From positions 1 to 36,453 of the IMG/VR virus record IMGVR_UViG_3300034020_000631: a stretch of 36,453 nt of DNA, one strand, 5' to 3'. This DNA comes from a virus. The translations under genes were made by a program, and so were the position numbers. Positions 8,184-36,453 of this stretch are shown piece by piece (position 1 is the first letter of the stretch; every line of letters begins with the position of its first letter). The notes beneath the pieces were generated by a model. The model saw only the letters and a program-made list of their open reading frames with translations, was not told where the DNA came from and made no database searches.

Positions 8184-8191
8184 TAAACCCT

Positions 8192-8762: not shown

Positions 8763-8776
8763 CGATCACCAACCCA

Positions 8777-8807: not shown

Positions 8808-8820
8808 CATAGGTGCAACA

Positions 8821-8919: not shown

Positions 8920-8925
8920 GTCACG

Positions 8926-8953: not shown

Positions 8954-9075
8954 GTCTTCTCACCATCGGGCACAGGTTGTCGGGGGGTTAGGAGGTTTGT
9001 TGTGCTGCGGTTCCTCACTGCGTTCGGACCATTCGTCGGGGGTTCACGGCTCGTAATTTTACAGATCGCGCGTTT

Positions 9076-9344: not shown

Positions 9345-9389
9345 GCACAATCTATTTTTTTTCCGGAGGCCCGAAATTCTTTGACATAT

Positions 9390-9468
9390 TTGACACTTTT
9401 TTGTGTAAAAGATTTGACACACAATGTGTCAAATGTTATACACTTTTGACAGTTTTAAAAAGTGTCAA
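9390..9468. repeat. Mixed-orientation GTGTMAA cluster
   Basis: In this stretch the motif occurs on both strands: TTGACAC at 9390-9396 and 9414-9420, and GTGTMAA at 9403-9409, 9426-9432 and 9462-9468. Inverted neighbours such as TTTGACAC-ACAAT-GTGTCAAA at 9413-9433 form a perfect 8-bp-arm palindrome, so a dimer could bind here. It marks the point where the arms change direction. Confidence 0.75.
9414..9442 (+). promoter_or_regulatory. Promoter-like element inside the array
   Basis: TTGACA (9414-9419), a 17-bp spacer and TATACA (9437-9442) read forward. The -35 box is itself part of an iteron motif and the spacer carries the opposing one, so a protein bound to the repeats would cover the promoter. 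It could make a primer RNA or an autoregulated early transcript. It is weaker than the 9882 promoter. Confidence 0.4.
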
Positions 9469-9510
9469 ATATCCAGTGTTTTCAAGGTAAAACCAGCAGG
9501 TTGGACATTT

Positions 9511-9660
9511 TTTCTTAGTATATTAGAATCTACTTAATATAAATAATATAAGAAAAAACACTACCCTTTCCCGATACAAAAAAATTTTGGCCGATAGGAT
9601 TTTGGTCCTACCCCCCACTTTACACTTCTGTAGAACTTATTATTTTTCCCCACTTAGATT
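9511..9660. other. A+T-rich stretch between repeat arms
   Basis: These 150 bases contain long A+T runs (such as TTAATATAAATAATATAAG at about 9533-9551 and CTTATTATTTTT near 9637) and one minus-oriented TTTACAC at 9619-9625. It lies between the two oppositely oriented arms and would be the natural melting element of an origin. A 5-bp inverted repeat (TAGGA...TCCTA) sits at about 9596-9610. No gene is visible. Confidence 0.5.
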
Positions 9661-9729
9661 ATATTATCTACCTTATCCCTCGCAAACCCTTGCGCCCCAA
9701 CGACTTCAGCTTTTTGACATGTAAAATCT

Positions 9730-9888
9730 TTGACACTTTTACAATCTAAATAATCTAAATTTGACACTTTTGCCCCTACCTTTTACACTTCTATGTCTAC
9801 TTTTGACACTTTTACCCCTACCTTTTACACTTTTCGCCATTACTTTTGCCTTTTACACTTTTCCAAGCCCCCGTAGGGGGCTTGACAC
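9730..9888 (-). repeat. Right iteron arm: GTGTMAA repeats, minus orientation
   Basis: Seven copies of the motif, all on the minus strand, read TTGACAC or TTTACAC on the plus strand at 9730, 9761, 9782, 9803, 9824, 9852 and 9882. Those at 9761-9824 are exactly 21 bp apart (two helical turns). A longer unit containing CCCCTACCTTTTACACTT repeats with a 42-bp shift. The last copy forms the -35 box of the strong forward promoter. Confidence 0.8.
9865..9883. other. Hairpin overlapping promoter -35
   Basis: AAGCCCCC-GTA-GGGGGCTT is a perfect 8-bp inverted repeat whose right arm runs into the TTGACA of the 9882 promoter. No T-run follows on either strand, so it is more likely a protein-binding or boundary element than a terminator. 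Confidence 0.45.
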
Positions 9889-9910
9889 CGCCGCCGGACC
9901 GTGGTACGCT
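9882..9910 (+). promoter_or_regulatory. Main forward promoter for the early/replication operon
   Basis: TTGACA (9882-9887), a 17-bp GC-rich spacer and TACGCT (9905-9910) followed by AGCC read forward. This resembles alphaproteobacterial housekeeping promoters, where the -35 is strong and the -10 is GC-rich with GCTA (family knowledge). Transcription would start near 9917, and the leader has a small GGAC-TTCG-GTCC hairpin (9924-9935). The first gene begins at 9986. The -35 overlaps the last repeat of the right arm, which suggests regulation by the repeat-binding protein. Confidence 0.6.
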
Positions 9911-9985
9911 AGCCGGGTCGATCGGACTTCGGTCCCCGACAGCTCAAACTTTCCAAACAACTGACAAACATAGTAGGAGAATGTT

Positions 9986-10333
9986 ATGTCTTCCTCTAAG
10001 CTTGTGCTACGCCCCGTTTATTCGGGCCGTGGTTATTCCCCCAGTGACGCCGTCTATGACTGGTATGCTGGGAGCGACTTCATTTGTAACGAAGGCCATC
10101 TGTGGTCCATCGAAGAACTCGATGAAATTTTAGCCCTTGGCTACACCAAGCTTATTTTGCTCTGTGGTCCTGCCAACGCTAAGATTGACCTTCCCACCAA
10201 CCTCCCTTCTCGCCGCTGGCTTATTGCCAACAACTTCCCGAACAATCGCCACATTTACGCTACCGCTGCTGTGGTTCATCATCACGATGGCCGCCTCATT
10301 ATCGGCGAAGGCGTTTCCAGAAAGGGCTTTTAA
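9986..10333 (+). CDS. Hypothetical protein, 115 aa, first gene of the long early operon
   Basis: It starts MSSSKLVLRPVYSGRGYSPS with AGGAG five bases before the ATG. A mixed alpha/beta pattern is visible: a helix with SIEELDEILALG, a strand YTKLILLCG, and a C-terminal part with HHHDGRLIIGEGVS. There are no membrane segments. It follows the promoter at 9882 and overlaps the next gene by one base (TAATG), so it is translationally coupled to a small membrane protein. No family is recognised. As the first early gene it could be a host-takeover factor. Confidence 0.7.
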   Translation: MSSSKLVLRPVYSGRGYSPSDAVYDWYAGSDFICNEGHLWSIEELDEILALGYTKLILLCGPANAKIDLPTNLPSRRWLIANNFPNNRHIYATAAVVHHHDGRLIIGEGVSRKGF

Positions 10334-10512
10334 TGAACACCGGCTACACTCAAACAATCTCTATCCCACTCAACACTCCTGTAACCTGTCTGCCATACGA
10401 CAGCTTTGATATCGCTATTATCAGTATCGGTATCGCCCTAGCCGCTTGCTGCGTCACCCTGGCTGTTGTGGCTCATTTCGTCTTCAAAGTGATTGATCCC
10501 AACAACCGCTAA
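10333..10512 (+). CDS. Small membrane protein, 59 aa
   Basis: The frame begins MNTGYTQTISIPLNTPVTCL, has one long hydrophobic helix (about residues 26-51, DIAIISIGIALAACCV...) and ends FKVIDPNNR. The ATG shares its first base with the preceding TAA stop (TAATG), giving translational coupling. The next membrane protein follows 16 bp later. A 25-bp block of this gene (10462-10486) is repeated exactly at 11110-11134. Two consecutive small membrane proteins suggest an envelope-directed function. No family is recognised. Confidence 0.6.
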   Translation: MNTGYTQTISIPLNTPVTCLPYDSFDIAIISIGIALAACCVTLAVVAHFVFKVIDPNNR

Positions 10513-10528
10513 CCAAGAGAGAAACCAC

Positions 10529-10891
10529 ATGTTCGGACTGTTCATGCTGATCTACCTCAGTGGCTTTGTCGCCATCTCCGTAACCATGGGCTATCTATTT
10601 GCGCGATACGTGGCCGCTGGTAAGATTCTCTACCCCGATGGTACCTACGACCGCATTTGGTTCCAAACCGCATGGGTGAGCCTCCTGTGGCCTTTATTGA
10701 CCACCGTGTATATCCTCCTGCTGATCGGCAAAATGTTCTCTGATGCTCAGTTAGAATATGAGCTTTACGAACGCACAAACGAAACCAACCAAGAGTTGCG
10801 GACTAAAAACAACGAACATTTTGCTGATGCTTGGCGGACAAACACAAACACAAACACGCCTAATGAACCCACAGTGGACATCCGCGTTTGA
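10529..10891 (+). CDS. Small membrane protein, 120 aa
   Basis: It starts MFGLFMLIYLSGFVAISVTM with AGAGAGAAA upstream of the ATG at 10529. An in-frame ATG 36 bp earlier would overlap the preceding gene and has no ribosome-binding site. There are two transmembrane segments (about residues 2-24 and 48-70). Between them is a loop with ILYPDGTYDRIWFQ, and after the second is a soluble, Asn/Thr-rich tail (residues about 80-120). It could be an inner-membrane protein involved in superinfection exclusion or envelope change. That is speculation, as no family is recognised. Confidence 0.65.
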   Translation: MFGLFMLIYLSGFVAISVTMGYLFARYVAAGKILYPDGTYDRIWFQTAWVSLLWPLLTTVYILLLIGKMFSDAQLEYELYERTNETNQELRTKNNEHFADAWRTNTNTNTPNEPTVDIRV

Positions 10892-10912
10892 TAGAGCAGC
10901 AGGAGAAGCGCA

Positions 10913-11146
10913 GTGCTGCTTTACGACGACATTGAAACCGCCATGTCAGCGCATTGGCTTCTCCTGCTCACTGCCGTTCGTCTGGATAAAGGCGAAGTTT
11001 GGTGGGAAGAGCTTTCAAAATTGGATGGGTACGAACAAATTACAGAACTACGCAAACAAAACTTAGATATTCCCGATGATTTTGAAACGTGGGTAATTTT
11101 CTTTCGAGCGCTGTTGTGGCTCATTTCGTCTTCAGAACGTGGGTAA
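10913..11146 (+). CDS. Small acidic protein, paralogue family, altered C-terminus
   Basis: A 77-residue protein from a GTG at 10913 with AGGAGA six bases upstream. It contains AHWLLLLTAVRLDKGEVWWE and ends DDFETWVIFFRALLWLISSS. The core VRLDKGEVWW resembles LRAEKGEDWW of the next gene and, more distantly, part of the 16085 gene, so these look like one small-protein family. The last residues are encoded by a patchwork repeat (11086-11159) that carries a block from the membrane-protein gene, and the stop lies in the second copy. The present C-terminus may therefore be a recent change. Function is unknown. Confidence 0.6.
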   Translation: MLLYDDIETAMSAHWLLLLTAVRLDKGEVWWEELSKLDGYEQITELRKQNLDIPDDFETWVIFFRALLWLISSSERG

Positions 11147-11159
11147 TTTTCTTTTGAGC
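11086..11159. repeat. Patchwork duplication
   Basis: A 24-bp segment starting AACGTGGGTAATTTTCTTT occurs at 11086-11109 and again at 11136-11159 with one C/T difference. The 26 bp between them consist almost wholly of a 25-bp block (11110-11134) identical to 10462-10486 in the 59-aa membrane-protein gene. This is the pattern left by a polymerase template switch or a microhomology-driven exchange. Confidence 0.85.
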
Positions 11160-11185
11160 TATGAGCAAAATCAATCGGAGTTACC

Positions 11186-11524
11186 ATGAGTAAGAATACA
11201 CAACTAGAAGTATTACCAAGTTTTATACTTATATTTTCTGCTTTAAGAGCCGAAAAAGGCGAAGATTGGTGGTATTCCTGCACTCATCGGGCGCATAAAA
11301 AAATTGTTGATACTACATATGATTTTCTCACGTTTATGCGCACGCATTACGGAGATATTTACCCATTTGAACTATGGGCTGACCTCGACGATATGGTTGA
11401 GGCTTACAAAACAGCAATAGGAGAAAACCCAAACACACACTCAGTCAGTGAAGAACGTCAACAAACAAGAGAGGAACAAGACAATGCAGAACAATTCAAC
11501 CAAAATCGAAACGACTGGCGCTAA
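11186..11524 (+). CDS. Small acidic protein, paralogue of the 10913 gene
   Basis: A 112-residue protein (MSKNTQLEVLPSFILIFSAL...) with GGAG seven bases before the ATG. Residues 9-30 (LPSFILIFSALRAEKGEDWW) match the hydrophobic-then-charged core of the preceding gene. The middle contains YPFELWADLDDMVEAYK and the tail is strongly charged. Its last 41 bases overlap the start of the AAA ATPase gene in another frame, so the two are coupled. The family is unrecognised. The tandem arrangement suggests duplication followed by divergence. Confidence 0.6.
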   Translation: MSKNTQLEVLPSFILIFSALRAEKGEDWWYSCTHRAHKKIVDTTYDFLTFMRTHYGDIYPFELWADLDDMVEAYKTAIGENPNTHSVSEERQQTREEQDNAEQFNQNRNDWR

Positions 11525-12521
11525 CGCTATACGCAGCACTCAACTGTCAGAAGTTATCAAATCGCTCTATGCGATTAAGCGTACGCTTTGTGTCGAAGGC
11601 CCCCCTGGGGGTGGCAAAACGTCTATCGTGCGTCAAGCCGCTAATCAGCTTGGTGTGCAGTATATCGAGCGGCATATGCCGACAATGCTTGTGGAAGATT
11701 TTGGTATCCCAGTCCCCGATAACGGCACGCTGCGTTACCAAATCCCAGAGTGGTTCCCTACTGATCCGACGTCGGAAGGCATTTTGTGCTTTGACGACCG
11801 CAACCAAGCGTCTGCTGACTTGCAGAAGGTCCTGGCCAATATCTGCCAAGCACGGAACCTTCATGGTGTGCCTTTGCCCCCCGGCTGGATGGTTGTTAGC
11901 ACTGGCAACAGACAAAGTGATCGAGCCGGTGCTAACCGTGTTCTTAGCCATCTGCGTAACCGTGAGACTGCCATCGAGCTTGTGACCAGTATGGATGATT
12001 GGGTTAACTGGGCTTTGGCTAACGAAGTACGTTCGGAAGTTATCTCTTTCATTCGGTTCAAGCCTACCATGCTGCATGATTTTGATCCGCAGCGTGATGC
12101 TAATCCAACTCCCCGTTCCTGGGTTGACGGCGTTTCCGCAGTGCTGGACGTTGTGCCTAAGAGCGCTGAATTTGCGTGCTTTGTCGGCGCTGTGGGGGAG
12201 GGCGCTGCTACGGAGTTTAACGCGTTTCTCAAAATCTATCGAGAGCTTCCTGATCCAGACGCTATCATTGCTAAACCGGATTCTTCAGACGTTCCCACTA
12301 GCCCGTCAACGCTCTATGCACTTACTGGTGCTCTTAGTGCGAGAACCAACAAAGATACTATCGGCAACGTGATGAAGTACCTTCGGCGTATGCCGGGTGA
12401 GTTTGGCGTCATGTTGGTGCTGTCTGTTTTGGGCAGTCCGAAAACGGCTGTTCTTGCTGCGCATCCTTCGGTGGCTGATTGGATTCGTGAGAATAAGCAT
12501 ATCATTCTCGGCCAACACTAA
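11484..12521 (+). CDS. MoxR-type AAA+ ATPase
   Basis: A 345-residue protein. Walker A is GPPGGGKT at residues 39-46, Walker B is ILCFDD at 100-105 with Asp in place of the usual catalytic Glu, and sensor-1 is VVSTGNR near 137-143. The rest is helical. MoxR ATPases act as chaperones or remodelers with VWA-domain partners, and such a partner lies two genes downstream. The start at 11484 (MQNNSTKIET) is chosen because AGAGAGGAA precedes it. An in-frame ATG 36 bp upstream lacks one. The order ATPase - DUF3150-like - VWA/metallopeptidase matches operons seen in other phages and proteobacteria. The substrate is unknown. Confidence 0.85.
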   Translation: MQNNSTKIETTGANAIRSTQLSEVIKSLYAIKRTLCVEGPPGGGKTSIVRQAANQLGVQYIERHMPTMLVEDFGIPVPDNGTLRYQIPEWFPTDPTSEGILCFDDRNQASADLQKVLANICQARNLHGVPLPPGWMVVSTGNRQSDRAGANRVLSHLRNRETAIELVTSMDDWVNWALANEVRSEVISFIRFKPTMLHDFDPQRDANPTPRSWVDGVSAVLDVVPKSAEFACFVGAVGEGAATEFNAFLKIYRELPDPDAIIAKPDSSDVPTSPSTLYALTGALSARTNKDTIGNVMKYLRRMPGEFGVMLVLSVLGSPKTAVLAAHPSVADWIRENKHIILGQH

Positions 12522-13420: not shown

Positions 13421-14566
13421 ATGTCTAAACAAAAACTACACGCTGATGTCGCCGAGCGTATATCTCGTGCTAAGACACAGCTAGTTATGAAATATCCGTT
13501 TTTCGGTATGTTGGCTCTCAACATGTCGTTTCGGATTGACGACAATCTCAACCCGCCAACTGCCGCGACTAACGGCAAAGAGATTATTTTCCACCCCGGT
13601 TTCATCCGCACACTGAACGACGCAGAAGTTTTGTTTCTCGTTGGGCATGAGGTTCTTCACCCGGTGCTGGAGCATATTTTGCGGCGTGGTTCGCGTGACC
13701 CATTCAAGTGGAACATTGCAGCTGACGTTGTCGTGAACCAAATCCTCACCGACGAACGGGTTGGTAAGATGCCGGATCACGGTGTTTTAGATGGCGATTT
13801 GTTTCGCAGAGGCGGCGGCGTTGTCGAAACTATCTATTCGCTGTTGCCGCAAGAAGACAACGAAGGCCGACAACCAGGGGATGGGCAACCCGGTTCATCT
13901 CTAGATAACTGCATGGATGCCCCTGGCGATGCGTCGCAACAGGCTGAATTGCAGGCAGACCTTAAGACCATGCTAGCACAAGCCGCACAGGTCGCTAAGA
14001 TGCGGGGCAACCTTAGTGAGGGTCTTAAACGCTTTGTCGAGGATACGCTTAACCCGCGCGTTGACTGGCGTGATGTCCTACACCGCTTTGTGGAGAAAGC
14101 CCGCACTGACGAACGCTCATTCTCGCGTGTCAATCGCCGCTTTTATTCGATGGGTCTGTGCATGCCGAGCGTTAGCGGTGAGGAAATGGGAGAACTTGTG
14201 GTCGCTGTGGATTGCTCCGGCTCTATTGGAAGCAATGAGCTTAATCAGTTTGCGACTGAGATTCGAACTATCCACCAGGATAGTAAACCAAGGGCGATTC
14301 ACGTTGTTTATTTCGACAGCAAGGTCTGCCATTACGACAAGTTTGACCAACAGGAGGACCCTTTTATTAAGCCGCACGGTGGCGGCGGAACGGCGTTCTC
14401 CCCTGTCATGCGGTATATCGAGGAGCACGAAATTACGCCGGTCGCGTGCGTATTCCTAACCGATTTGTGCTGTAGCGACTTCGGACCCCAACCAGATTAC
14501 CCAGTGTTATGGGTGTCCACACATTCCGACAAAGCCCCATGGGGCGAAGTTGTGATGATGAAATAA
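13421..14566 (+). CDS. HExxH metallopeptidase-VWA fusion (DUF2201-like)
   Basis: A 381-residue protein with two parts. The N-terminal half carries HEVLH at residues 76-80 within VLFLVGHEVLHPVLEH, a zinc-peptidase motif as in DUF2201_N. The C-terminal half is a VWA-like domain with a full metal-ion site: D264, S266 and S268 (DCSGS), T324 in GGGGTAF and D348 in FLTDLCC. A Gly/Gln/Asp-rich linker lies at about 145-175. VWA partners of MoxR ATPases bind clients, and the fused peptidase could process them. Whether it is proteolytically active is not known. It directly follows the DUF3150-like gene, with CGGAGAGAAC before the ATG. Confidence 0.85.
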   Translation: MSKQKLHADVAERISRAKTQLVMKYPFFGMLALNMSFRIDDNLNPPTAATNGKEIIFHPGFIRTLNDAEVLFLVGHEVLHPVLEHILRRGSRDPFKWNIAADVVVNQILTDERVGKMPDHGVLDGDLFRRGGGVVETIYSLLPQEDNEGRQPGDGQPGSSLDNCMDAPGDASQQAELQADLKTMLAQAAQVAKMRGNLSEGLKRFVEDTLNPRVDWRDVLHRFVEKARTDERSFSRVNRRFYSMGLCMPSVSGEEMGELVVAVDCSGSIGSNELNQFATEIRTIHQDSKPRAIHVVYFDSKVCHYDKFDQQEDPFIKPHGGGGTAFSPVMRYIEEHEITPVACVFLTDLCCSDFGPQPDYPVLWVSTHSDKAPWGEVVMMK

Positions 14567-24917: not shown

Positions 24918-27737
24918 ATGAATACGCTGGAGTTTTTGCGGCGTGTTCTGCCCGAGAGTGGCTGGTATTGCGTAGGCGTTGCGCTACCGAACAGTAAGTT
25001 TAAGCACAAATTTTCTCAGTCGCTTGAAGAAGTGGCTGAGTATTCGAAGCGAATTAGTGCTGGTGGCTACGATGTTTACTACGCAGTTTCATCTTTCAAA
25101 GATGCAAACTCTCGTCGGCAACACAACGTACAAGAAACTAGAATTTTCTTTATAGACGTAGACGTTGGCAAAGACAGAAACTCATATGCCAACAAGCGCG
25201 AGGCTCTTACAGCCGTCTTAGAATTTGTGCAGCGTAACCAACTGCCAAAGCCCATGATCGTATCATCGGGCAAAGGCTTTCATATTTACTGGGCGCTAAA
25301 GACTCCGCTTTCGTTTTACGAGTGGAAGCCACGCGCAGAAGCGCTTAAAGCGCTCGCCATTGCGCAAGGACTGGTTATTGACCCAGCGGTGCCGGGCGAC
25401 AGCGCTCGCGTCCTGCGGGCTCCTGGGACGCTCCACGTTGGTTCTGGTTCTACAGTTAAGGTTGTGGTGCCTGCTGAGGCAATTGACCTGAGCGAGTTTA
25501 ATATCGCGCCTGCACCGCCGATGGCTAATAAACCTCGCGGTCTTCTGTCCAACTTAAAAGTTAGTAGCGATTTTCCGCCAGCGGTCGCCGATATTGTTGC
25601 ATCAAAGTGCAAACAAATTAATTGGGCGATCAACAATCAAAGCGAAGTCGAAGAACCGTTTTGGTACGCGCTGCTTGGTATCGCCGCGTTCACACAAAAT
25701 CCAGAAGAGACCGCTATTGCGTGGAGCAGCAACCACCCTGATTTCTCCGAACAACAAACAATCAATAAGCTAGAGCAATGGAAAGCCAAAGCAGATGGGC
25801 CTTCGACGTGCGCGCGTTTTGAAGCGCTGCGCCCCAGTGGCTGCAAAGGTTGTCCGTTCCAGGGGAAGATAACTTCTCCATGCCGTCTTGGTGCGCAGTT
25901 TCAAGAGGTTGGTACGGACCCAGACGCTCCAGATACAAGCGTAACTAGTGTGCCAGTGCCGAGACCTTTTAAGCGGACAGCGCGAGGCATAGCCTACACC
26001 ATAGAAGATACTGATGTGGACGTATGTCCGTTCGATATTTATCCGGTCAGCTATGGTAGGGATGAAGGGTTAGGGTATGAAGTCGTTCGTTTCAATTGGA
26101 AACGCCCCCATGTAGGGTGGACTCCTCTTGTAATGCGGCAGGCTTTGCTAACTGAAGGGCATAGAGATTTCGCTGCTGCGTGCGCAGATCAGGGGATTGT
26201 GTTACCAAGCAAAAAACAAACTGAGGTTTTTCAACTCATGCTTCGTGCATACATGGAAGAACTAAAAAAGATTCGTAGTCTTACTAACCTCTATACAACT
26301 ATGGGGTGGAAGGAAGACCACGATCAGTTTGTTATTGGAGAATACGTAATTCGCCCTGAGGGGCAAAGCGTTATTGAAGAGCGGTCCACGCTGGCTGCTA
26401 ACGCTTCACGTAACAGCGGAGATATGTTTGGCGTTTCCGGATCACTCGACACGTGGGTTAACGCGACATCTATCCTAGAGAAGGCCGTAATGCCATGGCA
26501 TATGTTTGCTCTCGGTGTTGGGTTCAGCGCACCGCTCTATGCATTCGGCGGTCTTAAGGGGCTGACCATCTCTCTTTACGGTGAGACTGGCGGAGGCAAG
26601 ACGCTCATCCAATACTGGATTCAGAGCATCTATGGTAACCCAGATCGCCTGCACTTTGCCGCTAAGTACACGCAGAACACGCTGTTCAGCCGTCTCGGTA
26701 GCTACTCAAATTTGCCTATGACTATCGACGAAGCTACCATGCTGCAAGATAAAGAGGTGGGTGATTTCCTTTACTGGGTTAGCCAAGGGCGGGATAAGGC
26801 GCGGTTGAACCGCAATTCAGAAGAACGCGACGCAAAGACATGGGCAACGCCGGTCGTGATCTCTACTAATAAATCTATCCAAGCAAAACTTATCTCTTCT
26901 GGTCTGGACACGGACGCGCAGATGGCGCGGCTTTTGGAAGTGACTATCCCGCCACACACGTTGTTCTCCAAGGACAGCACGGTCGGTAAGAAGATTTACC
27001 ACCATCTAATGAAGAACTACGGCTATGCTGGACGTGCGTTTTTGCGCCATCTTGTAGGGCTTGGACCTGATAAGTTGCGCACACTTGTCGAAGAACATGC
27101 GAAAGAGTTCTATAAAACTTACAACGCCAAGTTCGCAGGACATGAACGTTTTTGGGAACAGGCTGTTATTCTTGCAGACCTTGGGTCTAAGATTGCGCAA
27201 GACTTGAGCTTGATTAAGTACGATTACACTGCTGGTACACGATGGGTGTTAGACCAGTTGGGCGTGCTGCGCGACTCAATGAACGAGATTAAGCTAGACG
27301 CTTTTGACCTGCTCGGGCAGTATCTTAACGAAGTTGCTAACGCGACAGTGACCGTTACCCAGACTGCAAACAATCCTCCTATGTGCGACCACACACGGCT
27401 ACCTCGCGGAGATGTTCGTGCGCGCATCCAGCTGTGGAGAAAAGACGGATCGACAAACTTTACTCGCGGTGTGCTGTTAGTAGACCGGACCCACCTGCGG
27501 CGCTGGCTCTCCAGCGGAGGGCATGACTACAAGGCGTTTCAAAAAGAAATTAGTGTTAGCAATGCTGATGCATCGCCTCGCGGGTTTAAGGGATATCTCG
27601 CTAAGGACACGCCGATCAAGTTACCACAATCTTATGTTTTGGGTTTTGATCTAGCGCATCCCAAGCTTGAAGGTATGCTCAACGATATCAGCGAGGCTTA
27701 TGACCAGCGGGCGTTCTCTAAACTCAAACTTGTTTAG
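24918..27737 (+). CDS. Primase-helicase (AEP-type primase fused to DUF927-like ATPase)
   Basis: A 939-residue protein. The N-terminal primase/polymerase part shows D80-V-D82 (FFIDVDVG) and H122 in SSGKGFHIYW, the archaeo-eukaryotic primase signature. A Cys cluster near residues 298-325 (CARFEALRPSGCKGCPFQGK, then SPC) may bind zinc. The C-terminal part is a DUF927-like helicase ATPase with Walker A GETGGGKT (K561), Walker B TIDEA (D604/E605) and sensor VVISTNKSIQ. It should prime and unwind at the fork, and could recognise the origin-like repeats. The ATG at 24918 follows a hairpin with GAGG upstream. Its stop overlaps the stop of the opposing giant gene. Confidence 0.88.
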   Translation: MNTLEFLRRVLPESGWYCVGVALPNSKFKHKFSQSLEEVAEYSKRISAGGYDVYYAVSSFKDANSRRQHNVQETRIFFIDVDVGKDRNSYANKREALTAVLEFVQRNQLPKPMIVSSGKGFHIYWALKTPLSFYEWKPRAEALKALAIAQGLVIDPAVPGDSARVLRAPGTLHVGSGSTVKVVVPAEAIDLSEFNIAPAPPMANKPRGLLSNLKVSSDFPPAVADIVASKCKQINWAINNQSEVEEPFWYALLGIAAFTQNPEETAIAWSSNHPDFSEQQTINKLEQWKAKADGPSTCARFEALRPSGCKGCPFQGKITSPCRLGAQFQEVGTDPDAPDTSVTSVPVPRPFKRTARGIAYTIEDTDVDVCPFDIYPVSYGRDEGLGYEVVRFNWKRPHVGWTPLVMRQALLTEGHRDFAAACADQGIVLPSKKQTEVFQLMLRAYMEELKKIRSLTNLYTTMGWKEDHDQFVIGEYVIRPEGQSVIEERSTLAANASRNSGDMFGVSGSLDTWVNATSILEKAVMPWHMFALGVGFSAPLYAFGGLKGLTISLYGETGGGKTLIQYWIQSIYGNPDRLHFAAKYTQNTLFSRLGSYSNLPMTIDEATMLQDKEVGDFLYWVSQGRDKARLNRNSEERDAKTWATPVVISTNKSIQAKLISSGLDTDAQMARLLEVTIPPHTLFSKDSTVGKKIYHHLMKNYGYAGRAFLRHLVGLGPDKLRTLVEEHAKEFYKTYNAKFAGHERFWEQAVILADLGSKIAQDLSLIKYDYTAGTRWVLDQLGVLRDSMNEIKLDAFDLLGQYLNEVANATVTVTQTANNPPMCDHTRLPRGDVRARIQLWRKDGSTNFTRGVLLVDRTHLRRWLSSGGHDYKAFQKEISVSNADASPRGFKGYLAKDTPIKLPQSYVLGFDLAHPKLEGMLNDISEAYDQRAFSKLKLV

Positions 27738-30700
27738 TCGACGCCGTAGGCGGCTGAAAGTTGCTCGACGGTTGGGCGAACAGTCAGACTAGATGCATCA
27801 TGGTAGCGAGCCACGGTGGTCTGTCTGGCCGCTTCGCCTGCCCGGCGAGCGGAGGTAAGGAAGTCGCGGATTTCAAACTCAGTGCCGCGGACGCTTTCGT
27901 TCCACTCATTTACGCGGTCCACGACGCGCCGCATAGTGGCAGTGTCGTTGCGTCGATAGGCAACTGCATACTGCTGTACAAAGTGGCGGCGGATTTCTTT
28001 GGCGTAGTTATCTGTACGGCGAGACATACGAACAACATCGTTATGGAACGTTGCCTCTGATGGGAAGAAGCCCAACAGCCTGAACGCCAGAACGTGGGCT
28101 GGCAGGTTCTCAGAAATAAGCTGTCCTTGTGCGTTGCTGATGGACCCGTCGCTCATAAAGATCAGCGTGTCACTCAGCGCGCGCGTACCTGCGGATGGGA
28201 ACTGGCGAAGCACGTCGCTAAGCGGCCCATTTGCACCGAGTGCGAAGTAATCCATTACGGTTCCTGCAAACTTAGCTGTGCTATCAATCTGGCTAGCCAC
28301 AGGGCCGATGGTGTCGATAACCGTTTGGTAGGGATCGGCCCCCGCTAGCAACGCCCCAGAGAAGGGGATCATGTCGCCCATACCGATCCGGCTCGAAATG
28401 GTAGCTCCGGTGTGCAAGTCCAACACACCGCGCAAGAGGACAGGTCCGAGCCCCGGCATAAGAGCGTCGCCCAGCCGAGCAATCTCAGCCTCGACACTGC
28501 CCATCGGAATCTTAAACTTTTGGGCAAGTGTGTCGATCAAGTCCATCAGGTCTTCCGCAAACGGAATAGCTTTAAGGCCGCCGAGCAGCACGAGTAGGGC
28601 GAGCAGTTTGATTTGCTCGCTTCGCGGAAGATGGCGAACCAGCTGCACCATCGTAACTTTAAATTGCTGGTAAACGTAAGCAATCGATCCGAGCGGGCCA
28701 CGGAACAATCCCGGTCGGTTATAGAGAGCGAAGTCACCGAGAGTAAATCTTAGCGTTGTTTCGGTATGGGACATCACGTCTAAATAATCTTGTGAGTCCT
28801 GATTGGAAAACGCTGCCGGGTCTGCGCCCGCCGCAATCGCTCTATCTCTATAAAGCCGGTACGCCGCTAGGGAGGTCGCGGCTCGCGATACCGCTTCAAG
28901 TTTATTGAAGAAGAACATATATCCTTTGGATGCGGCGCGAAGCGTTCTATCTCCGATTCCGTTATAGGTCGTACCCATCAACCCATAAGTTTGCGCAGCT
29001 TGCAGCTGCCCGCGGTCACTCATATCAAGCAGCATCCGTGCTTCGGCCTCAGTGAGGCCGTACTTCGTCCACTCTTTTCTGGCGACCATCTCCTGCATTT
29101 TTTCACGTTCGTCGATAAGCCCGGCCATCTTAGAGATGTTACCAGTAGCGCGACCTAGTTCAGTGGCCGTCTTCATATCCCCAAACCCGCCGCCGCGTCC
29201 GGTTTGGTAGTTAAACCCAGCGAGATATGGGGCGACTGCAAGCGGCAGTGAAACAAGGTTGAGAAGACCGGAGGCTACAGAGCCGCCCAGCTGCGTAACC
29301 ACGGTAAACGTGCGGAGGCCAGAGCCAATCTTACCGAGCCACGTATCAATATCATCGCCCGCGACATCTACGTTCTGTGCATAAAGCTCCAAGAGCTTAG
29401 CCGCGTGGGCACGGCCACGGTTGCCCTGCCCGAGAGTTTCGATCCGCTGCTTGCCCCTGGTCGTCGTAATGGTAAAGGTGCGTCCTACGGGGGCCATATG
29501 GCGCAGCATGTAGGCGTACTGCACAAGCTCTTGTTCAGCCACGGTGCGTTGTGCGGCATCGGCTGCTGCGTCGAACCGGGCCTGAAGGTCTCTAAGATAC
29601 TCAAAGTTACCAAACCAGTTATTGCCGGTTTCGTTGTTCATAATATCGTCGATGTCAGAAACATAAATCCGACGTGCGGAGATACGCGACATAGATTCCA
29701 AATATGGGTCAGCGCCCAAACGGATAACGTCTTTATCGAAGCCGGGCGTAGCGGAACGTTCTAGCGAAGCGCGGATGCGCGAACCGGTTTCGGTAATCTT
29801 CTCGATTAGGTTAGCCCGCTCTCTTGGCGACAACGAAATATTAAGTGTGTCCAAAAGGCGGATAACTTCTGAGAAATTAATGCGCTCACTAAATGAGCGA
29901 CCCTCAAAGGCTTCGTCAAACGACGCTTGAAGAATAACATTTACATCTTGGTTTTCGCTGTCTTTGACTTTCCACACTCGGTTACCAAAAACTTCGTTGA
30001 TTTGATTAGTGATAGACCGTGCGCCGGGCTCACCCGTAGCGGTATCTTCCGAGTTGTTCATCAAAAGATAGGGCAACATCTGCTGGAAGTCTTCGTGCAG
30101 ACGAATTATTTGCGGGCTATCTGAATTTTCCGTACCAGGAACGATAGCTCTAACCCGCACTTGGAATTTACCTTCGCGGCGCAGCGGAACGTAATGGCCA
30201 GCGATGTTGCGCTTGGCTGTTTTCTGTTGTTCCTGCACCGAAGCAAACGCAGCCGCGCTCCGTTGAATAACGGTCAGCACTTTTTTCTGTTGGTCAAGGT
30301 TCATCCCCATTTGGTTTACTTGTTCGAGGGCATCCCGACTCAACAAGTCTTTTAGATTTCTGTAGCGAGCCGTCTTCTTAAACTCGTGGATGAAGTCATC
30401 GTCTTCCAACGCTCGACGGCGGGTGTTTGCCTGTTCTGGCGTAATGGCACCAGCTGCAAGTTCAGCATCGATTGCGGCTTCTTTAGCAGCGCGATCTCTA
30501 GCGTACTGCGCATCAGAAACAGTGCGGTCCCAATCGTCGATCTTAGATGTAGAGTGTAGCGCGCGTAGAACGTTACGAAGCCAGATATCGGCTTCTTCCG
30601 CATTCTCTTCTTGGAACGAGTTATAGGCTTCGCGGATACGTCTAAACCATTCTCGTTGCGCTTGTGTTGGCGGCGTGCGGAAGCGGGCCAGGATGCGATT

Positions 30701-33700
30701 GATTCCACTTTCACTAAGCTTGCTGTAGTGTGCAACTTCGGCTAGAACGCGGTCTTTTACGGCTTCAAACATACCGTCCATATATTCTTTATAGACAATG
30801 TAGGCTTGATCGTCGGCTTTTACGTTACGCTGGTAGGTACCGGCTCGCTCGCCATTGGCAAAGTTCCAGTCGAAGCCGCGCGAAAACTCTTCGGGGGTAA
30901 CAATTCCTTGCCTCTTAAGAGCTTCAAAGGCTGCCGGATCAATCGTCACAACGCCGCGGTCGCTGATAATCAGGAAGTCAGGAAGCTTATTAAGGTCTTC
31001 CTCCTGCACCGTGGGTAGCTTATACAGAGATGCGTATGCTAGCAACTCGCTAGCGATTTCGATTTGCTCGTCGGGAACACCTCTACCCAGCCCGAACAGC
31101 GGTGCGTTGCGAGCCGTGCCTGTCATTTGCTCATACTTACCAAGCAAGTTCTTAGAAGTTTCTCCGATGTTTCGGAATACTTTCAGAAGTTCAGACAATC
31201 CGTAGCTGCGGGTCGCAATGTTGTCCGTGGTTTGGATCGTTTCAAGTGCCTGAGCAATAGCACGTTTACCCCCACGTGCCAGACCTGCCGCGATCTTCCC
31301 CATATTACCAGCATTGATGCGCGTCGGCGCACCGAACACGCCGGGCTGAGCAAACGCCGTAGCTGCGGGAGAGCCAGTGTAGGGGATGCTGGCGCGGAAC
31401 GCTCCATTAGTCAGGTCGGCGTCGGTCTCTCTGAGAATTTCCTGCCACGTACCTGGGGGCGGCGGATCATTAGACCGCACATAAATACGGGCCTGCTTAA
31501 TCCAGTGGCGCGCAAGAGCGTCGTCCGTAAGAACGCCAAGCTTTCCAAGAAACTCTTTAGTCTTGTCCCAAATACGTGCAACAATATTCGTTTCGAGAAC
31601 AGCTGCTCGATCTGCCAAAGCTTCTTCGATCATGTAGGCTTTACGAGTAGCCTCAGGCAAATCTTTATAAGTGTTCTGGTAAATATCGAGTCGAGCGTCT
31701 ACTTCGTTACGGACCCACGGGGTGTTGTCGTAGATTTGGTTCATAAAATCTACATATGTTTGGGGAGCACCTTTATCCTTTTTAAGTGCGTTCTTGATAT
31801 TTGTGAAAGCCAGTTGCAGACCATAGTGGCCGTGCAGTTCGTGGGCCATGGCGAAGCGAAGCTGCTTTGCTGTTTTGATATTGTATGCAGCTACAATAAC
31901 GACAGGCGCAGACTGCCGGGCTTCCACTGATTGGCGGAGAGCATTACGCGTAGGCTCTTCTCTGGAGAGAATTTCTGCGATGCGAACACTGGTTGTGTCG
32001 CCGCCTCCTTTAGTAGACGGAACGTAAAACGCAGCTTCGATCTTATTGATATCGAGTTGGTTTTCGATACCGGGGAATCGAGCTTTCAGTTCTTCTGGCG
32101 AGTTAGCAACAAACGTCTGCACGCCGTCGCGAGCAGCGGCACCTACGCTAGCGCGGTTCATAAACTTAGTAGCTTCAAGTTTAGCCACGTCGGGTTTGAT
32201 TACCGTAACTGGTCGTCCGCTTTCGCCAATAAACTCTTGCTTCCTTGGCCGCTTGACTACGGGTTTCTTCAGCTGCGAGTCGCCTGCTTCGGGCTGACGC
32301 GTGCTTTCTTGTTCGGGAGTATTCTCAATACCCACGACTTCTGTGTCGAACGAACCAAAAACGTTTTCGGTCGAGATGGGCGGCTGCCCCTGAATTTGTG
32401 CAAACCGTTGGCGCGCTTGGTCTTCCGGTAAAATAGCTTGATCGCTAGGCGCTTGTGGCCCCTCTTGTATTTGTTGCCAACGAGATGGCGTTTCCTGTTC
32501 CGCAGGTGGCTCTTCTCTAACGCCGCGCAAATCAGCAACAGGTTTCCTACCTTCGATAGTTGTTTGGGCACCCGCAGCTTCTCGCCGCCGCTCAAGTATT
32601 CTTTCGGCTTCGTTTTCGACGTCGTCGAGCCAATCGTTAAGGTATTCTTTGTACCTCGCTGCAAAGCTAGTGTCGGTTTTTAGTTGCTTTGAAAGACCTT
32701 TTTCTGTTTTTAGGTCGAACTCTTTAAGGAGTGCTTCATTTCTTCTGTACGTTGTAAGGTTATCATTCAACGTTTTATTGTCTGGATTGTTTCTTAATCT
32801 AGCTTGCGTGTTAGAAATTTCTTGTCTGACAGCAACAAGCTGACGCTCCACCATCTCTTTAGGAGTGGGGATTGCATCTGGGTTAACGTTAGGACCAACG
32901 GTCTCGCCTTCGCGTTTGCGGATCGGCGCAAGCTGAATTTGAAGTTCGCTAAGCCGACTGCGAATACGCTTCTTAACATCTTCAATAGTTTCCGTAGGCG
33001 GCGCAGGTTCAGGCGCAGCCGCAAGCGTAGGTTCGGGCGCGGGCGCAGGGGTACGCCGGGGGGTAACAGGGCCAGCACGCACAGGTCCTCGCTGCGCAGG
33101 CGCAGGAGGCGGCGTAGGTTCGGGCTCAGGCGCACTGTCACTAAAGTCTGGAGACAGTGAGTCAAGCCATTCGGCTACCGTTGCGTTTGGTAGGAACTTT
33201 TCGTTCTCTCCTACAAAAAATCGACTTAGTGCATCTGCCAGTCTCTTAAAGAATTTTTCGACAACCGTAAGCGGCTTTCTTTGAGTGGTTGCCCATCTGG
33301 AAACTTGATCTGCAAACCATTCTGAAAACGATTTCCAGTAACGTTGCTCGGCGTCAGGAAGCTTTTCTACTTTCGTATCTTCTGGAACTTTCGTCGCTCT
33401 GCCTTGCTTATAAGCACGAAGACTTTCTACTAGCTCTCGCGCAGTTTTATTTTCTGTTTGCGCTACCCATTTTCTATGCTCTTCCATGATTTTATTTTTT
33501 GTGGCTGAGTCTGCGTTTTCAAACGCACGCTTTTCCACAATATGCCCAAGTTCATGAGCAAGTATTTCAAGCTGCCTAGCTGTATTATCAACCGGTCTGA
33601 TGGCGATATAGTACTCGTCATCTTTTAACCGACGTGCGGAACCCACTGTTGTTTGAGATTCGAGCGCAGCAGACCCAAGTTTCTTATAGACCCCTGCCAT

Positions 33701-36453
33701 TGAAGGACGAAGTGCTTTACCAGCTTCAGGAGTTATGACAGCGAGTCTGATATCCGATAGTTTGAGTAGCGGAAGCCATCCACCAAGAATGTTTTTTACA
33801 TATGGCGGGATGTCATCAGACAGATATACATTCTGCCCATTTGCAAAAGGCCCATCGGGGTTTTCTGCAAGACGCCGGTTGTCCTCCTCAATCGCTTTGA
33901 GGCGTTCGGCTCTTAGAAGTTCTAGCTCATCTTCTGTAAAAAGATCTTGGTTATTTGGAAGATTTGCAACATCTAGATTGATCCACTCTTTATTTTTAAT
34001 ACCTACATATACAGGATTTGCTACACGTCTTTCATATAATTCAACAAGAGTTAAAGTACCATTAGTCCAGATTACAACTCCATTATATAGTTCCATTATT
34101 ATTTTTACTGAACGCGGAAGTTCTACTGTTTTAGGTGTAGGTTCGGGCTCAGGCGTAGGTGCAGGCTCGGGCGCAGAATAAACCGGCCTCTCGACATTAT
34201 CTCGTTGTAGCTGGCGAGGAGCTACAGGCGTGGGTTGCCACGGAGGGGGCGCAGGTTCGGGCGCAGACTCTTCCTGCTCGATGGAGGTAATTTGGTTGCC
34301 GTAATGAACATTTTTATACGCACCCGGAAGAACCGGGTCTTCGTTCCACAATTCAACAGGGATCAGCCCAACACGCGGCGTTTCTTCAAACGGTTTATTG
34401 CGTGAGCTATCATTAGTTCCCCACGGATTAAGAGGTCCTGTTTTCCAAATAAGTGTTACGCTTTCGGGCCTAACATAGATGCGAACGTCTGTTTCATTCG
34501 GAATAGCAAGCCAATTCGCATCCGTTTCTTCCATATAAATTGTACGATCACTGCGCTTTTTCTCGCCAAAGTCTTCCCTATGGTCATAATCGCTACGCTC
34601 TGCTTTGGTACGCGTTGTCGTACCGTCGTCGTGAACGATATAGCTAGACCCTTTAGCGGTTTTAAAACCCTTGATCGGGCGCTGTGCAGTTGTAGGCGCA
34701 GGCGCAGGTTCGGGCGCAACAGCCGCAGCGGGGGGCGGAGCAGTAGGCGCAGCAGCCGAAGGCGGCGGGGGAGGGGGCGGCGCAGCCGCAGCCGCAACCG
34801 GAGCCGCAGCAGGGGGCGCAGGAGGCACAGGCGCAGCCGAAGGCGGCGGGGGAGGTTCGGGCGCAGGCGGAGCAGTAGGCGCAGCCGCAGCCGCAACAGG
34901 AGCGTTAAGCTCAGCAAGCCGTTGGCGAATGCGCGAGATGGTATCCGCTGCCTGTTCTTTTACTACAGCTTTAAGTCCTAAACCACGCGCGGCATTAACA
35001 ACCTTTAGACGATCAGGGGTTACGCCGCTATCCACTTGATCTAAAAGCTTCTGCGCTTGGTATTCTCTATAAAACTGTTGAATCGTTGGAGCTAGTGCGG
35101 GCTCAGACGAAATAAAATGCCCGATGCGCTGTCCAGCTGTATCAGGATTTCCGTTTTCTTCTAGGTTTTTGAACTGCGCAAAATACTGCGCTCTGCGTTC
35201 CTGACGCTCTTGATTAAGCTGCGCTTCTGCTTGCGCAGGACCGGTGTCTTCGATAGCGCGCGGCTGCGACTCATCGCGAAGATTAATAACGGACGGCCTG
35301 TTGGCGGCACGCTGCCCTTCTTCAATACTGGGAAACGGAGGGGCAATCGAACCCCCGACAGGGCCGGGGCCAGTACCCAACGGACTAATAGGAGTTGCGC
35401 CAATAGGCACGCCGCCCGGCGCAGGAAGTGCGCCCGCAGGACCACCCGCAGGACCGTCCGGAATCTCAACCGCTCTAAGTGTGGGCGGCGGGGGCGGAGT
35501 AAGGATGTTGACAGGATCACGCGTCGGGCTACGCAGACCAGCGACGCCACCGATAGCGCCACCGACAAGGAAGCCTGCTGCAAGGGCGTTGATAGCCGCT
35601 GCCAAGTCTTGGTCGTTAAGATCACGCCCCGTCACGCTGGTTTCAGCAGCGATACCAATACCCTCTTGGCCAGCCTCAGTAACAGCTTCAAGCGCACCGA
35701 CAGTACCGGCAGTGCCGACCACACGACGAACAAGATTTTGCTGCGTGGTCCCACGTCCGAGAAGCCGGTTAACGGCCACAAACTCGGGGAGGAACTCAAG
35801 CGCTGCGTACGGCACAGCGCCACTAAGAGCAGTGAATCGCGCACCAAGATCGTCCGGGTCGACGCCAGCGTCCATCAGGCGTGTGTAGATATCGCCAACG
35901 CCAGTGCCGTAGTTTTGCGCGAGGCCAGCTGCCATAGCAGAAGCGGAAATGATAGCTCGCCGTTGTGCAGCGTTAACAGCCTCGCCTCGCAGTCTTCGCT
36001 CAATACCCGTTTGGAGGGCACGACGAAACGCTGTGCGCGAAGCGAAACCGGACAGAGCACCACCAACAGTACCAACACCAGGACCAGCAGCGGCACTACC
36101 AATAGCCGCACCGCCAACAACCGCAGCGATACTCTCAACGATGGACGGGAGGGCTTCACCAAGAGTGGTTACTGCCCAGTCAGTAAGTCCACCAAAACGA
36201 TCATCGTCGTTTTCGATAACATCACGCGTAAAACTTACTTGCCATGGAGACAAACGCTGTTGAGTTTCTTGCCCCCAGTCGACAAAAGTTTCTGCAACTT
36301 GACGCCCGATAGGCAAACCGCCAACACCTGTCGCTTGCAATGCGCGGCCAAGCATCTCTTGAGACTGTGCGATACCGCGAGACACGCCCGCTCCGAAACG
36401 AGTTCCAGCACCTGGGTCTTCAGTGTTGGCAATCAGAGTTTCATAATCGTCAA
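27734..36453 (-). CDS. Giant polyvalent virion protein (two zincin motifs, PLxRFG-like), cut by right edge
   Basis: The minus-strand frame is open from the right edge to the stop at 27734, at least 2,906 residues. A GTG at 36385 is not the true start because the frame continues upstream (DDYETLIANTEDPGAGTRFG). Numbering from that GTG: Ala/Gly-rich hydrophobic segments at about 80-115 and 265-285; Pro/Ala/Glu linkers at about 495-565, 700-750 and 1085-1130; a zinc-peptidase motif HELGH at 944-948; a second motif HELHGH (HExxGH type) at 1515-1520; charged helical regions; and a C-terminal part with GPLGSIAYVYQQFK at about 2563, resembling the PLxRFG domain of phage polyvalent proteins, plus hydrophobic segments near 2362-2392 and 2592-2618. 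Such proteins are packed in the virion and injected with DNA to act in the host (established for the class). Its enzymes and targets here are inferred. Confidence 0.85.
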   Translation of the reverse strand, partial: DDYETLIANTEDPGAGTRFGAGVSRGIAQSQEMLGRALQATGVGGLPIGRQVAETFVDWGQETQQRLSPWQVSFTRDVIENDDDRFGGLTDWAVTTLGEALPSIVESIAAVVGGAAIGSAAAGPGVGTVGGALSGFASRTAFRRALQTGIERRLRGEAVNAAQRRAIISASAMAAGLAQNYGTGVGDIYTRLMDAGVDPDDLGARFTALSGAVPYAALEFLPEFVAVNRLLGRGTTQQNLVRRVVGTAGTVGALEAVTEAGQEGIGIAAETSVTGRDLNDQDLAAAINALAAGFLVGGAIGGVAGLRSPTRDPVNILTPPPPPTLRAVEIPDGPAGGPAGALPAPGGVPIGATPISPLGTGPGPVGGSIAPPFPSIEEGQRAANRPSVINLRDESQPRAIEDTGPAQAEAQLNQERQERRAQYFAQFKNLEENGNPDTAGQRIGHFISSEPALAPTIQQFYREYQAQKLLDQVDSGVTPDRLKVVNAARGLGLKAVVKEQAADTISRIRQRLAELNAPVAAAAAPTAPPAPEPPPPPSAAPVPPAPPAAAPVAAAAAPPPPPPPSAAAPTAPPPAAAVAPEPAPAPTTAQRPIKGFKTAKGSSYIVHDDGTTTRTKAERSDYDHREDFGEKKRSDRTIYMEETDANWLAIPNETDVRIYVRPESVTLIWKTGPLNPWGTNDSSRNKPFEETPRVGLIPVELWNEDPVLPGAYKNVHYGNQITSIEQEESAPEPAPPPWQPTPVAPRQLQRDNVERPVYSAPEPAPTPEPEPTPKTVELPRSVKIIMELYNGVVIWTNGTLTLVELYERRVANPVYVGIKNKEWINLDVANLPNNQDLFTEDELELLRAERLKAIEEDNRRLAENPDGPFANGQNVYLSDDIPPYVKNILGGWLPLLKLSDIRLAVITPEAGKALRPSMAGVYKKLGSAALESQTTVGSARRLKDDEYYIAIRPVDNTARQLEILAHELGHIVEKRAFENADSATKNKIMEEHRKWVAQTENKTARELVESLRAYKQGRATKVPEDTKVEKLPDAEQRYWKSFSEWFADQVSRWATTQRKPLTVVEKFFKRLADALSRFFVGENEKFLPNATVAEWLDSLSPDFSDSAPEPEPTPPPAPAQRGPVRAGPVTPRRTPAPAPEPTLAAAPEPAPPTETIEDVKKRIRSRLSELQIQLAPIRKREGETVGPNVNPDAIPTPKEMVERQLVAVRQEISNTQARLRNNPDNKTLNDNLTTYRRNEALLKEFDLKTEKGLSKQLKTDTSFAARYKEYLNDWLDDVENEAERILERRREAAGAQTTIEGRKPVADLRGVREEPPAEQETPSRWQQIQEGPQAPSDQAILPEDQARQRFAQIQGQPPISTENVFGSFDTEVVGIENTPEQESTRQPEAGDSQLKKPVVKRPRKQEFIGESGRPVTVIKPDVAKLEATKFMNRASVGAAARDGVQTFVANSPEELKARFPGIENQLDINKIEAAFYVPSTKGGGDTTSVRIAEILSREEPTRNALRQSVEARQSAPVVIVAAYNIKTAKQLRFAMAHELHGHYGLQLAFTNIKNALKKDKGAPQTYVDFMNQIYDNTPWVRNEVDARLDIYQNTYKDLPEATRKAYMIEEALADRAAVLETNIVARIWDKTKEFLGKLGVLTDDALARHWIKQARIYVRSNDPPPPGTWQEILRETDADLTNGAFRASIPYTGSPAATAFAQPGVFGAPTRINAGNMGKIAAGLARGGKRAIAQALETIQTTDNIATRSYGLSELLKVFRNIGETSKNLLGKYEQMTGTARNAPLFGLGRGVPDEQIEIASELLAYASLYKLPTVQEEDLNKLPDFLIISDRGVVTIDPAAFEALKRQGIVTPEEFSRGFDWNFANGERAGTYQRNVKADDQAYIVYKEYMDGMFEAVKDRVLAEVAHYSKLSESGINRILARFRTPPTQAQREWFRRIREAYNSFQEENAEEADIWLRNVLRALHSTSKIDDWDRTVSDAQYARDRAAKEAAIDAELAAGAITPEQANTRRRALEDDDFIHEFKKTARYRNLKDLLSRDALEQVNQMGMNLDQQKKVLTVIQRSAAAFASVQEQQKTAKRNIAGHYVPLRREGKFQVRVRAIVPGTENSDSPQIIRLHEDFQQMLPYLLMNNSEDTATGEPGARSITNQINEVFGNRVWKVKDSENQDVNVILQASFDEAFEGRSFSERINFSEVIRLLDTLNISLSPRERANLIEKITETGSRIRASLERSATPGFDKDVIRLGADPYLESMSRISARRIYVSDIDDIMNNETGNNWFGNFEYLRDLQARFDAAADAAQRTVAEQELVQYAYMLRHMAPVGRTFTITTTRGKQRIETLGQGNRGRAHAAKLLELYAQNVDVAGDDIDTWLGKIGSGLRTFTVVTQLGGSVASGLLNLVSLPLAVAPYLAGFNYQTGRGGGFGDMKTATELGRATGNISKMAGLIDEREKMQEMVARKEWTKYGLTEAEARMLLDMSDRGQLQAAQTYGLMGTTYNGIGDRTLRAASKGYMFFFNKLEAVSRAATSLAAYRLYRDRAIAAGADPAAFSNQDSQDYLDVMSHTETTLRFTLGDFALYNRPGLFRGPLGSIAYVYQQFKVTMVQLVRHLPRSEQIKLLALLVLLGGLKAIPFAEDLMDLIDTLAQKFKIPMGSVEAEIARLGDALMPGLGPVLLRGVLDLHTGATISSRIGMGDMIPFSGALLAGADPYQTVIDTIGPVASQIDSTAKFAGTVMDYFALGANGPLSDVLRQFPSAGTRALSDTLIFMSDGSISNAQGQLISENLPAHVLAFRLLGFFPSEATFHNDVVRMSRRTDNYAKEIRRHFVQQYAVAYRRNDTATMRRVVDRVNEWNESVRGTEFEIRDFLTSARRAGEAARQTTVARYHDASSLTVRPTVEQLSAAYGVD

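What the first reader, a model, noticed from the sequence alone, without database searches (positions are those of the whole stretch)
27734..36453. Giant injected polyvalent protein with two different zincin motifs
One polypeptide of at least 2,906 residues carries HELGH (944-948, residues numbered from the GTG at 36385) and HELHGH (1515-1520). The second has the HExxGH form known from dipeptidyl-peptidase-III-type enzymes and is unusual in a virion protein. Pro/Ala linkers separate modules, and the C-terminal part resembles PLxRFG proteins. Two peptidase-like domains could process the polyprotein itself after injection and attack separate host proteins. The modules between 1130-1500 and 1550-2350 match nothing I recognise.
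Basis: partly seen in the sequence, partly recalled or inferred. Interest (0 to 1): 0.7.

Follow-up and report, generated by a model that had tools for sequence, protein, structure and literature searches.

The report
Phage ejection polyprotein with two metallopeptidases
A short-tailed phage carries one giant late protein of about 3,000 amino acids that joins two probable zinc-dependent proteases; both kinds are already known in such "polyvalent" phage proteins, so this is a good example of a known class and not something new.

Summary
In detail: one unbroken minus-strand frame (27734-36451, 2,905 codons, open at the contig end) encodes HELGH and HELHGH. Both motifs lie in conserved metallopeptidase-like domains. 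MP1 (HELGH + E1044) is weakly M78/SprT-like. MP2 (HELHGH + EE1609-1610) belongs to a very common phage family with the signature HExxGHYGL; its predicted fold is closest to anthrax-lethal-factor-type zincins. The HExxxH active site, several peptidases in one polypeptide, and possible self-processing were all described for phage "polyvalent proteins" by Iyer et al. 2017, so HExxGH is not unusual here. The "unrecognised" stretches are mostly conserved in about 20 related giant proteins. The C-terminus passes the NCBIfam PLxRFG cut-off; that module also occurs in phage H66 gp60, recorded as mass-spectrometry verified. Kin genomes place the gene at the end of the late cluster, behind a lytic transglycosylase and overlapping the primase gene tail to tail. 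Particular to this window is MP1, with its neighbour D590, in a hypervariable Pro/Ala-rich slot of an MP2 protein: 1 of 155 giant proteins compared. Substrates remain unknown. Best reading: a co-ejected polyprotein whose peptidases process it or act on the host. New member of a known kind; low to moderate interest.

The parts
27734..36451 (-). giant polyvalent-type ORF, 2905 codons + stop, 5' end off the contig
   Evidence: kin lengths and start offset
35525..36436 (-). conserved N-terminal Gly/Ala-rich hydrophobic region (residues 6-309)
   Evidence: HMM shared with kin such as L192-L194, L197, L198, L206, L210
34682..34906 (-). Pro/Ala linker 1 (residues 516-590)
   Evidence: composition
34250..34678 (-). 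D590 domain (residues 592-734), shared with Sinorhizobium phage PBC5 'DarB-like' protein and L124/L125
   Evidence: phrog_938 5e-23; PBC5 41% identity; next to MP1 in L124/L125
33149..34075 (-). MP1 metallopeptidase-like domain (residues 793-1101)
   Evidence: 68 related loci, invariant ligand set, model pLDDT mostly 80-96 over this region, viral fold matches 1e-15 to 2e-3
33542..33556 (-). HELGH (residues 966-970)
   Evidence: invariant H, E, G, H
33320..33322 (-). E1044, inferred third zinc ligand of MP1 (SFSEWFAD)
   Evidence: invariant in 47 sequences
32987..33148 (-). Pro/Ala linker 2 (residues 1102-1155)
   Evidence: composition
31463..31900 (-). MP2 metallopeptidase-like domain, HExxGHYGL family (residues 1518-1663)
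   Evidence: profile E=1.6e-17; model and fold comparison
31826..31843 (-). HELHGH (residues 1537-1542)
   Evidence: H, E, G, H invariant in 51 sequences
31622..31627 (-). E1609-E1610 of EEALAD, inferred third zinc ligand of MP2
   Evidence: E1610 invariant and E1609 at least 90%; both present in the 4 full-length kin
30551..31237 (-). D1700, mostly helical module conserved in kin (residues 1739-1967)
   Evidence: model
27758..30280 (-). C-terminal module (residues 2058-2898), including the PLxRFG domain (2374-2867)
   Evidence: NF032893 135 bits vs cut-off 100; phrog_11358 2e-36; 25 related viral loci
24918..27737 (+). convergent primase/helicase-type gene, overlapping the giant gene by 4 bp; neighbour conserved in kin
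   Evidence: phrog_25314, phrog_8841; 49-53% identity to the kin neighbour gene

Best explanation
This is a polyvalent ejection polyprotein of a podovirus-like phage. It is made as the last product of the late cluster, probably packaged in the head and ejected with the DNA (inferred from homologues). The hydrophobic N-terminal region and the C-terminal PLxRFG module form its conserved frame. MP2 is the conserved resident metallopeptidase of this lineage (shown by conservation). Between the N-terminal region and MP2 lies a hypervariable Pro/Ala-rich slot, which in this phage has taken up a D590-MP1 block known from other giant phage proteins. Most likely mechanism (inferred): MP2, a zinc peptidase with a lethal-factor-like fold, cuts the polyprotein in the flexible linkers during assembly or after entry and frees its parts; MP1 either does the same or is a cargo peptidase that acts on a host protein.
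For: Family and architecture: N-term, MP2, D1700 and C-term conserved in about 20 kin of roughly 2,430-3,030 aa; HExxGH and the distal EE are present in every MP2-bearing locus fetched by the C-terminal module alone. Fold: MP2 model best matched by anthrax lethal factor catalytic domain (Z 8.1-8.4, rmsd about 4.2, about 175 residues) and MATCAP (Z 6.7); MP1 rows over residues 273-492 of its model are all metallopeptidases (M61, lethal factor, collagenases) but weak (Z 3.2-4.9); Pfam M78 in 11 of 47 MP1 members, best 9e-6. Virion context: PLxRFG cut-off passed; H66 gp60 shares the C-term module (1e-155) and its record says 'verified by mass spectrometry as part ...' (text cut there); JC1 gp69, another giant DarB-like protein, has 51 unique peptides in purified virions (PMC9144972). 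Synteny: the gene before it in kin is a lytic transglycosylase / internal-virion-type protein, the gene after it a convergent primase at 49-53% identity; a Rhizobium phage with a 55% identical capsid protein has the same order. Slot: the middle regions of kin are largely unrelated to the window's and P/A/Q-rich, and none has HExxH there. Processing role: proposed from P1 DdrB (PMC5512222).
Against: No direct evidence of cleavage, zinc binding or virion presence for this protein. N4 virion RNA polymerase is packaged uncut although it carries such a domain (PMC5512222). The MP2 fold match is borderline, and the MP1 match to solved structures is weak. No Pfam LPD domain matches the window protein.
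Confidence: 0.6

Rival explanations
1. MP1 and MP2 are host-directed effectors: each cuts a different host protein after ejection, and the polyprotein is not self-processed.
For: Iyer et al. list host-protein targeting as an alternative (PMC5512222); MP1 sits in a hypervariable slot, as expected of exchangeable cargo; the fold nearest to MP2, lethal factor, is a substrate-specific effector peptidase (its function is general knowledge).
Against: MP2 is kept in the whole lineage, with a near-constant distance to the C-terminal module (median 392 aa), which fits an internal role better than a fast-evolving effector.
Confidence: 0.3
2. One or both domains have lost peptidase activity and act as structural or packaging modules of the ejection machinery.
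For: N4 virion RNA polymerase is packaged unprocessed, although the region with its HExxH domain is needed for encapsidation (PMC5512222); the N4 structure preprint assigns no protease activity to its HExxH domain in the passages found (PMC12633501).
Against: The catalytic set (H, E, H, distal E) is invariant in 47 and 51 diverse sequences, which is not expected if catalysis were lost; part of that conservation comes from selecting on motif patterns, except for the C-term-fetched set.
Confidence: 0.1
3. MP2 is a true dipeptidyl-peptidase-III (M49) relative.
For: Same HExxGH motif, and EEALAD resembles the second M49 motif EEXR(K)AE(D) (PMC5667867); two DPP III chains appear in the fold list at Z 5.6-5.7.
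Against: No PF03571 match in the window or in 51 MP2 members; no M49 chain by sequence profile; L instead of R/K in the second motif; 66 residues between the motifs in the window, outside the quoted 22-55; lethal factor scores clearly higher (8.4 against 5.7).
Confidence: 0.04

Closest known systems
Zincin-like MPTase domains of phage polyvalent proteins, including the HEXXXH set (Iyer et al. 2017, PMC5512222)
   Same: Giant late phage protein; HExxH and HExxxH peptidase domains between other domains; lethal factor as nearest solved fold; several peptidases per polypeptide already counted there (about 8% of those with an MPTase)
   Different: MP1 together with MP2 was found only here among 155 giant proteins compared; no named LPD domain detected
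Pseudomonas phage H66 gp60 (PLxRFG protein)
   Same: C-terminal module (1e-155); two HExxH motifs (HELQH 2297, HEMVH 2493); recorded as mass-spectrometry verified; lies just upstream of the lysis genes
   Different: Carries methyltransferase-like, LPD23 and LPD3 domains; no MP1, MP2, D1700 or N-term match
Core kin from IMG/VR such as L193, L198, L202, L210
   Same: N-term, MP2, D1700, C-term in order; convergent primase neighbour (49-53% identity)
   Different: No MP1 or D590; different middle region
Microcystis phage Mae-Yong1326-1 UUJ74515.1 and the MP1 giant proteins (e.g. L121-L124)
   Same: MP1 domain (28% identity with Mae over 132 aa; up to 44% in L121); late-gene position
   Different: No MP2 and another overall architecture
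Rhizobium phage RHph_TM3_14A EVB41_084
   Same: Same gene order, C-terminal module (1e-90), one HExxH (HEATH); capsid protein 55% identical to the window's
   Different: Inorganic pyrophosphatase domain; no MP1; MP2 match not significant

Membership tests
Phage polyvalent proteins (Iyer et al. 2017) | several unrelated domains in one large polypeptide | tested here: met
   six separate modules with different relatives
Phage polyvalent proteins (Iyer et al. 2017) | encoded with virion/packaging genes | tested here: met
   late strand shared with terminase, portal and capsid genes; kin order behind a transglycosylase
Phage polyvalent proteins (Iyer et al. 2017) | named LPD domain | tested here: inconclusive
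   no Pfam LPD match in the window, but the C-term module is shared with H66 gp60, which has LPD3 and LPD23
Phage polyvalent proteins (Iyer et al. 2017) | carried in the virion and transferred to the host | not testable with these tools
   only by homology: H66 gp60
PLxRFG domain family NF032893 | score above the curated cut-off | tested here: met
   135.4 against 100 bits
HExxGHYGL / HEXXXH zincins (MP2) | HExxGH plus distal EE and family profile match | tested here: met
   E=1.6e-17; ligands conserved
HExxGHYGL / HEXXXH zincins (MP2) | zincin fold | tested here: inconclusive
   lethal factor Z 8.1-8.4, at the edge of what the tool calls reliable; Foldseek itself gave no significant match
HExxGHYGL / HEXXXH zincins (MP2) | peptidase activity | not testable with these tools
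   needs assay
M78 / SprT-like zincins (MP1) | Pfam profile above gathering score | tested here: not met
   M78 18.2 bits against 22 for the window domain; hence 'M78-like' only
M78 / SprT-like zincins (MP1) | HExxH with distal Glu on a later helix | tested here: met
   invariant H, E, H and E1044; helices at or beside both in the model
M49 dipeptidyl peptidase III | HEXXGH | tested here: met
   HELHGH
M49 dipeptidyl peptidase III | second motif EEXR(K)AE(D) 22-55 residues downstream | tested here: not met
   EEALAD, L in place of R/K, 66 residues downstream
M49 dipeptidyl peptidase III | family profile PF03571 | tested here: not met

The most novel reading that the evidence does not exclude
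MP1 and MP2 are alternative resident proteases of PLxRFG-type ejection proteins: each occurs at nearly the same distance before the C-terminal module in otherwise separate lineages (median gaps 355 and 392 aa), and the window is a hybrid in which two proteases cut the same polyprotein in sequence, one of them perhaps after entry.
Probability: 0.15. Interest if true: 0.5.

Novelty: new member of a known kind. Interest (0 to 1): 0.27.

Why it matters
It shows that the HExxGHYGL peptidases, which appear in giant proteins of very many phages yet match no Pfam family consistently in the scans made here, form a coherent family with an invariant ligand set and a fixed place before the PLxRFG module. 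A simple catalytic-Glu test in one phage could decide a question left open in 2017: whether these peptidases cut their own polyprotein or a host protein. The window itself adds one unusual combination, not a new kind.

Tried and rejected
Whole-protein and MP2-only patterns in viral contigs found no confirmed relatives; a strict HELHGH[YF]G pattern gave only two out-of-frame chance hits. tblastn of MP2 against named phages found nothing. C-term in bacterial genomes: no relatives. Sequence profiles against solved structures gave only chance-level or weak rows (best for MP1 is a snake venom metalloproteinase, 0.012). Foldseek against PDB gave no significant match for either model; PCNA and DsbG rows for the D590-MP1 model were treated as noise. 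The 'FHIPEP' Pfam row is taken as chance. I first took the D590-MP1 block for a plain insertion, but kin have middle regions of 673-1,202 aa in the same place, so 'exchange in a hypervariable slot' describes it better. The GTG at 36385 as start was rejected. Bcep22 under accession NC_005262 is not held, so the link to JC1 gp69 stays indirect.

Full report
OBSERVATION. The window is a virus record of 36,453 bases. The minus-strand frame 27734-36451 has 2,905 codons and a stop, with no stop upstream before the contig end. The GTG used for numbering is probably not the start: kin proteins align across that point and extend 111-143 residues further upstream. I number from the first whole codon of the contig, so HELGH is 966-970 and HELHGH 1537-1542.

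WHAT THE DOMAINS ARE. Searching viral contigs for HExxGHYGL gave 114 stretches; about 99 in-frame occurrences lie within ORFs of at least 250 aa, nearly all giant. A profile from these, made without the window, matches the window at 1514-1640 with E=1.6e-17, and the best of 200 shuffles reaches 0.009. So MP2 belongs to a large phage family. MP1 has 68 relatives in viral contigs and invariant H966, E967, G969, H970, E1044. Iterated profiles over all fetched loci give the architecture N-term 6-309, D590 592-734, MP1 793-1101, MP2 1518-1663, D1700 1739-1967, C-term 2058-2898. The C-terminus passes the NCBIfam PLxRFG cut-off. Residues 400-515 and 1155-1400, and the linkers, have no relatives in the sample.

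FOLDS. The MP1 model (with D590) has pLDDT mostly 80-96 over MP1. Against viral predicted structures it matches polyvalent-associated proteins at 1e-15 and a SprT-like protein at 2e-3. Against solved structures the only rows over its catalytic part are metallopeptidases, but weak (Z 3.2-4.9). The MP2 model (with D1700) has pLDDT of about 90 over the motif. VIA-align ranks anthrax lethal factor catalytic domain first (Z 8.1-8.4, rmsd 4.1-4.5, 170-175 residues), then MATCAP (6.5-6.7) and DPP III (5.6-5.7). Foldseek alone found nothing significant for either against PDB. I call both zincin-like, with the MP2 fold borderline and MP1 resting more on sequence. Whether MP2 shares ancestry with DPP III is open; it is not a member by profile or by the second motif.

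CONTEXT. Left-end minus-strand genes are terminase, portal/adaptor, major head protein and a tail-spike fragment; plus-strand genes are replication functions. The giant gene meets the primase gene tail to tail with a 4-bp overlap. Four kin have a homologous primase next to the giant gene (49-53% identity; helicase and polymerase 62% and 53% in L210). In kin the preceding gene encodes a lytic transglycosylase or internal-virion-type protein. Rhizobium phage RHph_TM3_14A (circular record, capsid 55% identical) has a giant gene behind a lysozyme gene at the end of the late cluster. This suggests that the missing late genes lie off both ends of the contig (inference). H66 gp60, whose record states mass-spectrometry verification (the printed note is cut after 'as part'; the gp64 note in the same record reads 'as part of the virion'), shares the C-terminal module.

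HOW UNUSUAL. Among 155 non-redundant giant ORFs with MP1 or MP2, 100 have MP2 only, 54 MP1 only, and the window both. But 23 of 155, the window included, have two zincin-type motifs, mostly HEWWHA-type plus HExxGH, and L069 has two HExxGH. So two different zincin motifs in one giant protein is a recurrent pattern; MP1 with MP2 is the only private feature. MP1 and MP2 lie at similar distances before the C-terminal module in their own lineages (medians 355 and 392 aa). The sample is biased, since many loci were fetched through these very motifs.

PRIOR KNOWLEDGE. Iyer et al. 2017 (PMC5512222) describe zincin-like peptidases as the commonest domain of polyvalent proteins, an HEXXXH set among them, proteins with one to five copies, lethal factor as a fold relative, and both self-processing and host targeting as hypotheses. 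The finding is an instance of this. I found no experimental test of an HExxGH phage domain in the papers searched; that is a statement about this library only.

MECHANISM. Shown: frame, motifs, family membership, conserved ligands, architecture, synteny. Inferred: virion location, ejection, zinc peptidase activity, and linker cleavage by MP2 with MP1 as extra protease or cargo. Confidence is about 0.85 that it is an ejected polyvalent protein with two zincin-type domains and about 0.4 that self-processing is the main role; 0.6 is given for the combined statement.

Noticed in passing
window 7909-11447: About 3.5 kb between the terminase-side genes and the ATPase-like gene without a clearly coding long ORF; may hold small genes or control regions.
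   Followed up: no
window 3-674: Left end is a truncated tail-spike-like gene; with the giant gene open at the right end and the kin gene order, the missing late genes probably lie off both ends of the contig.
   Followed up: partly
window 13421-14566: HNH endonuclease-family gene (phrog_1314, 1e-93); an ATPase-like gene lies nearby at 11448-12521 (phrog_1297).
   Followed up: no
L069 ORF (frame +1), residues 1434 and 1674; also L038, L070 and L077: Giant proteins with two copies of the MP2-type domain; in L069 both carry HExxGH.
   Followed up: partly
L201/L202/L203/L211 giant ORF, residues 1408-1563: About 156 residues inserted inside MP2 between HEAIGH and the distal EE motif.
   Followed up: no
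L215:7472-14395 (Rhizobium phage RHph_TM3_14A EVB41_084): Giant PLxRFG-type protein with an inorganic pyrophosphatase domain (2e-48) and a HEATH motif, annotated only as hypothetical.
   Followed up: partly
MP2 family as a whole (alignment A4): No Pfam family matches the widespread HExxGHYGL domain consistently in 51 members; phrog_14770 matches 29.
   Followed up: partly
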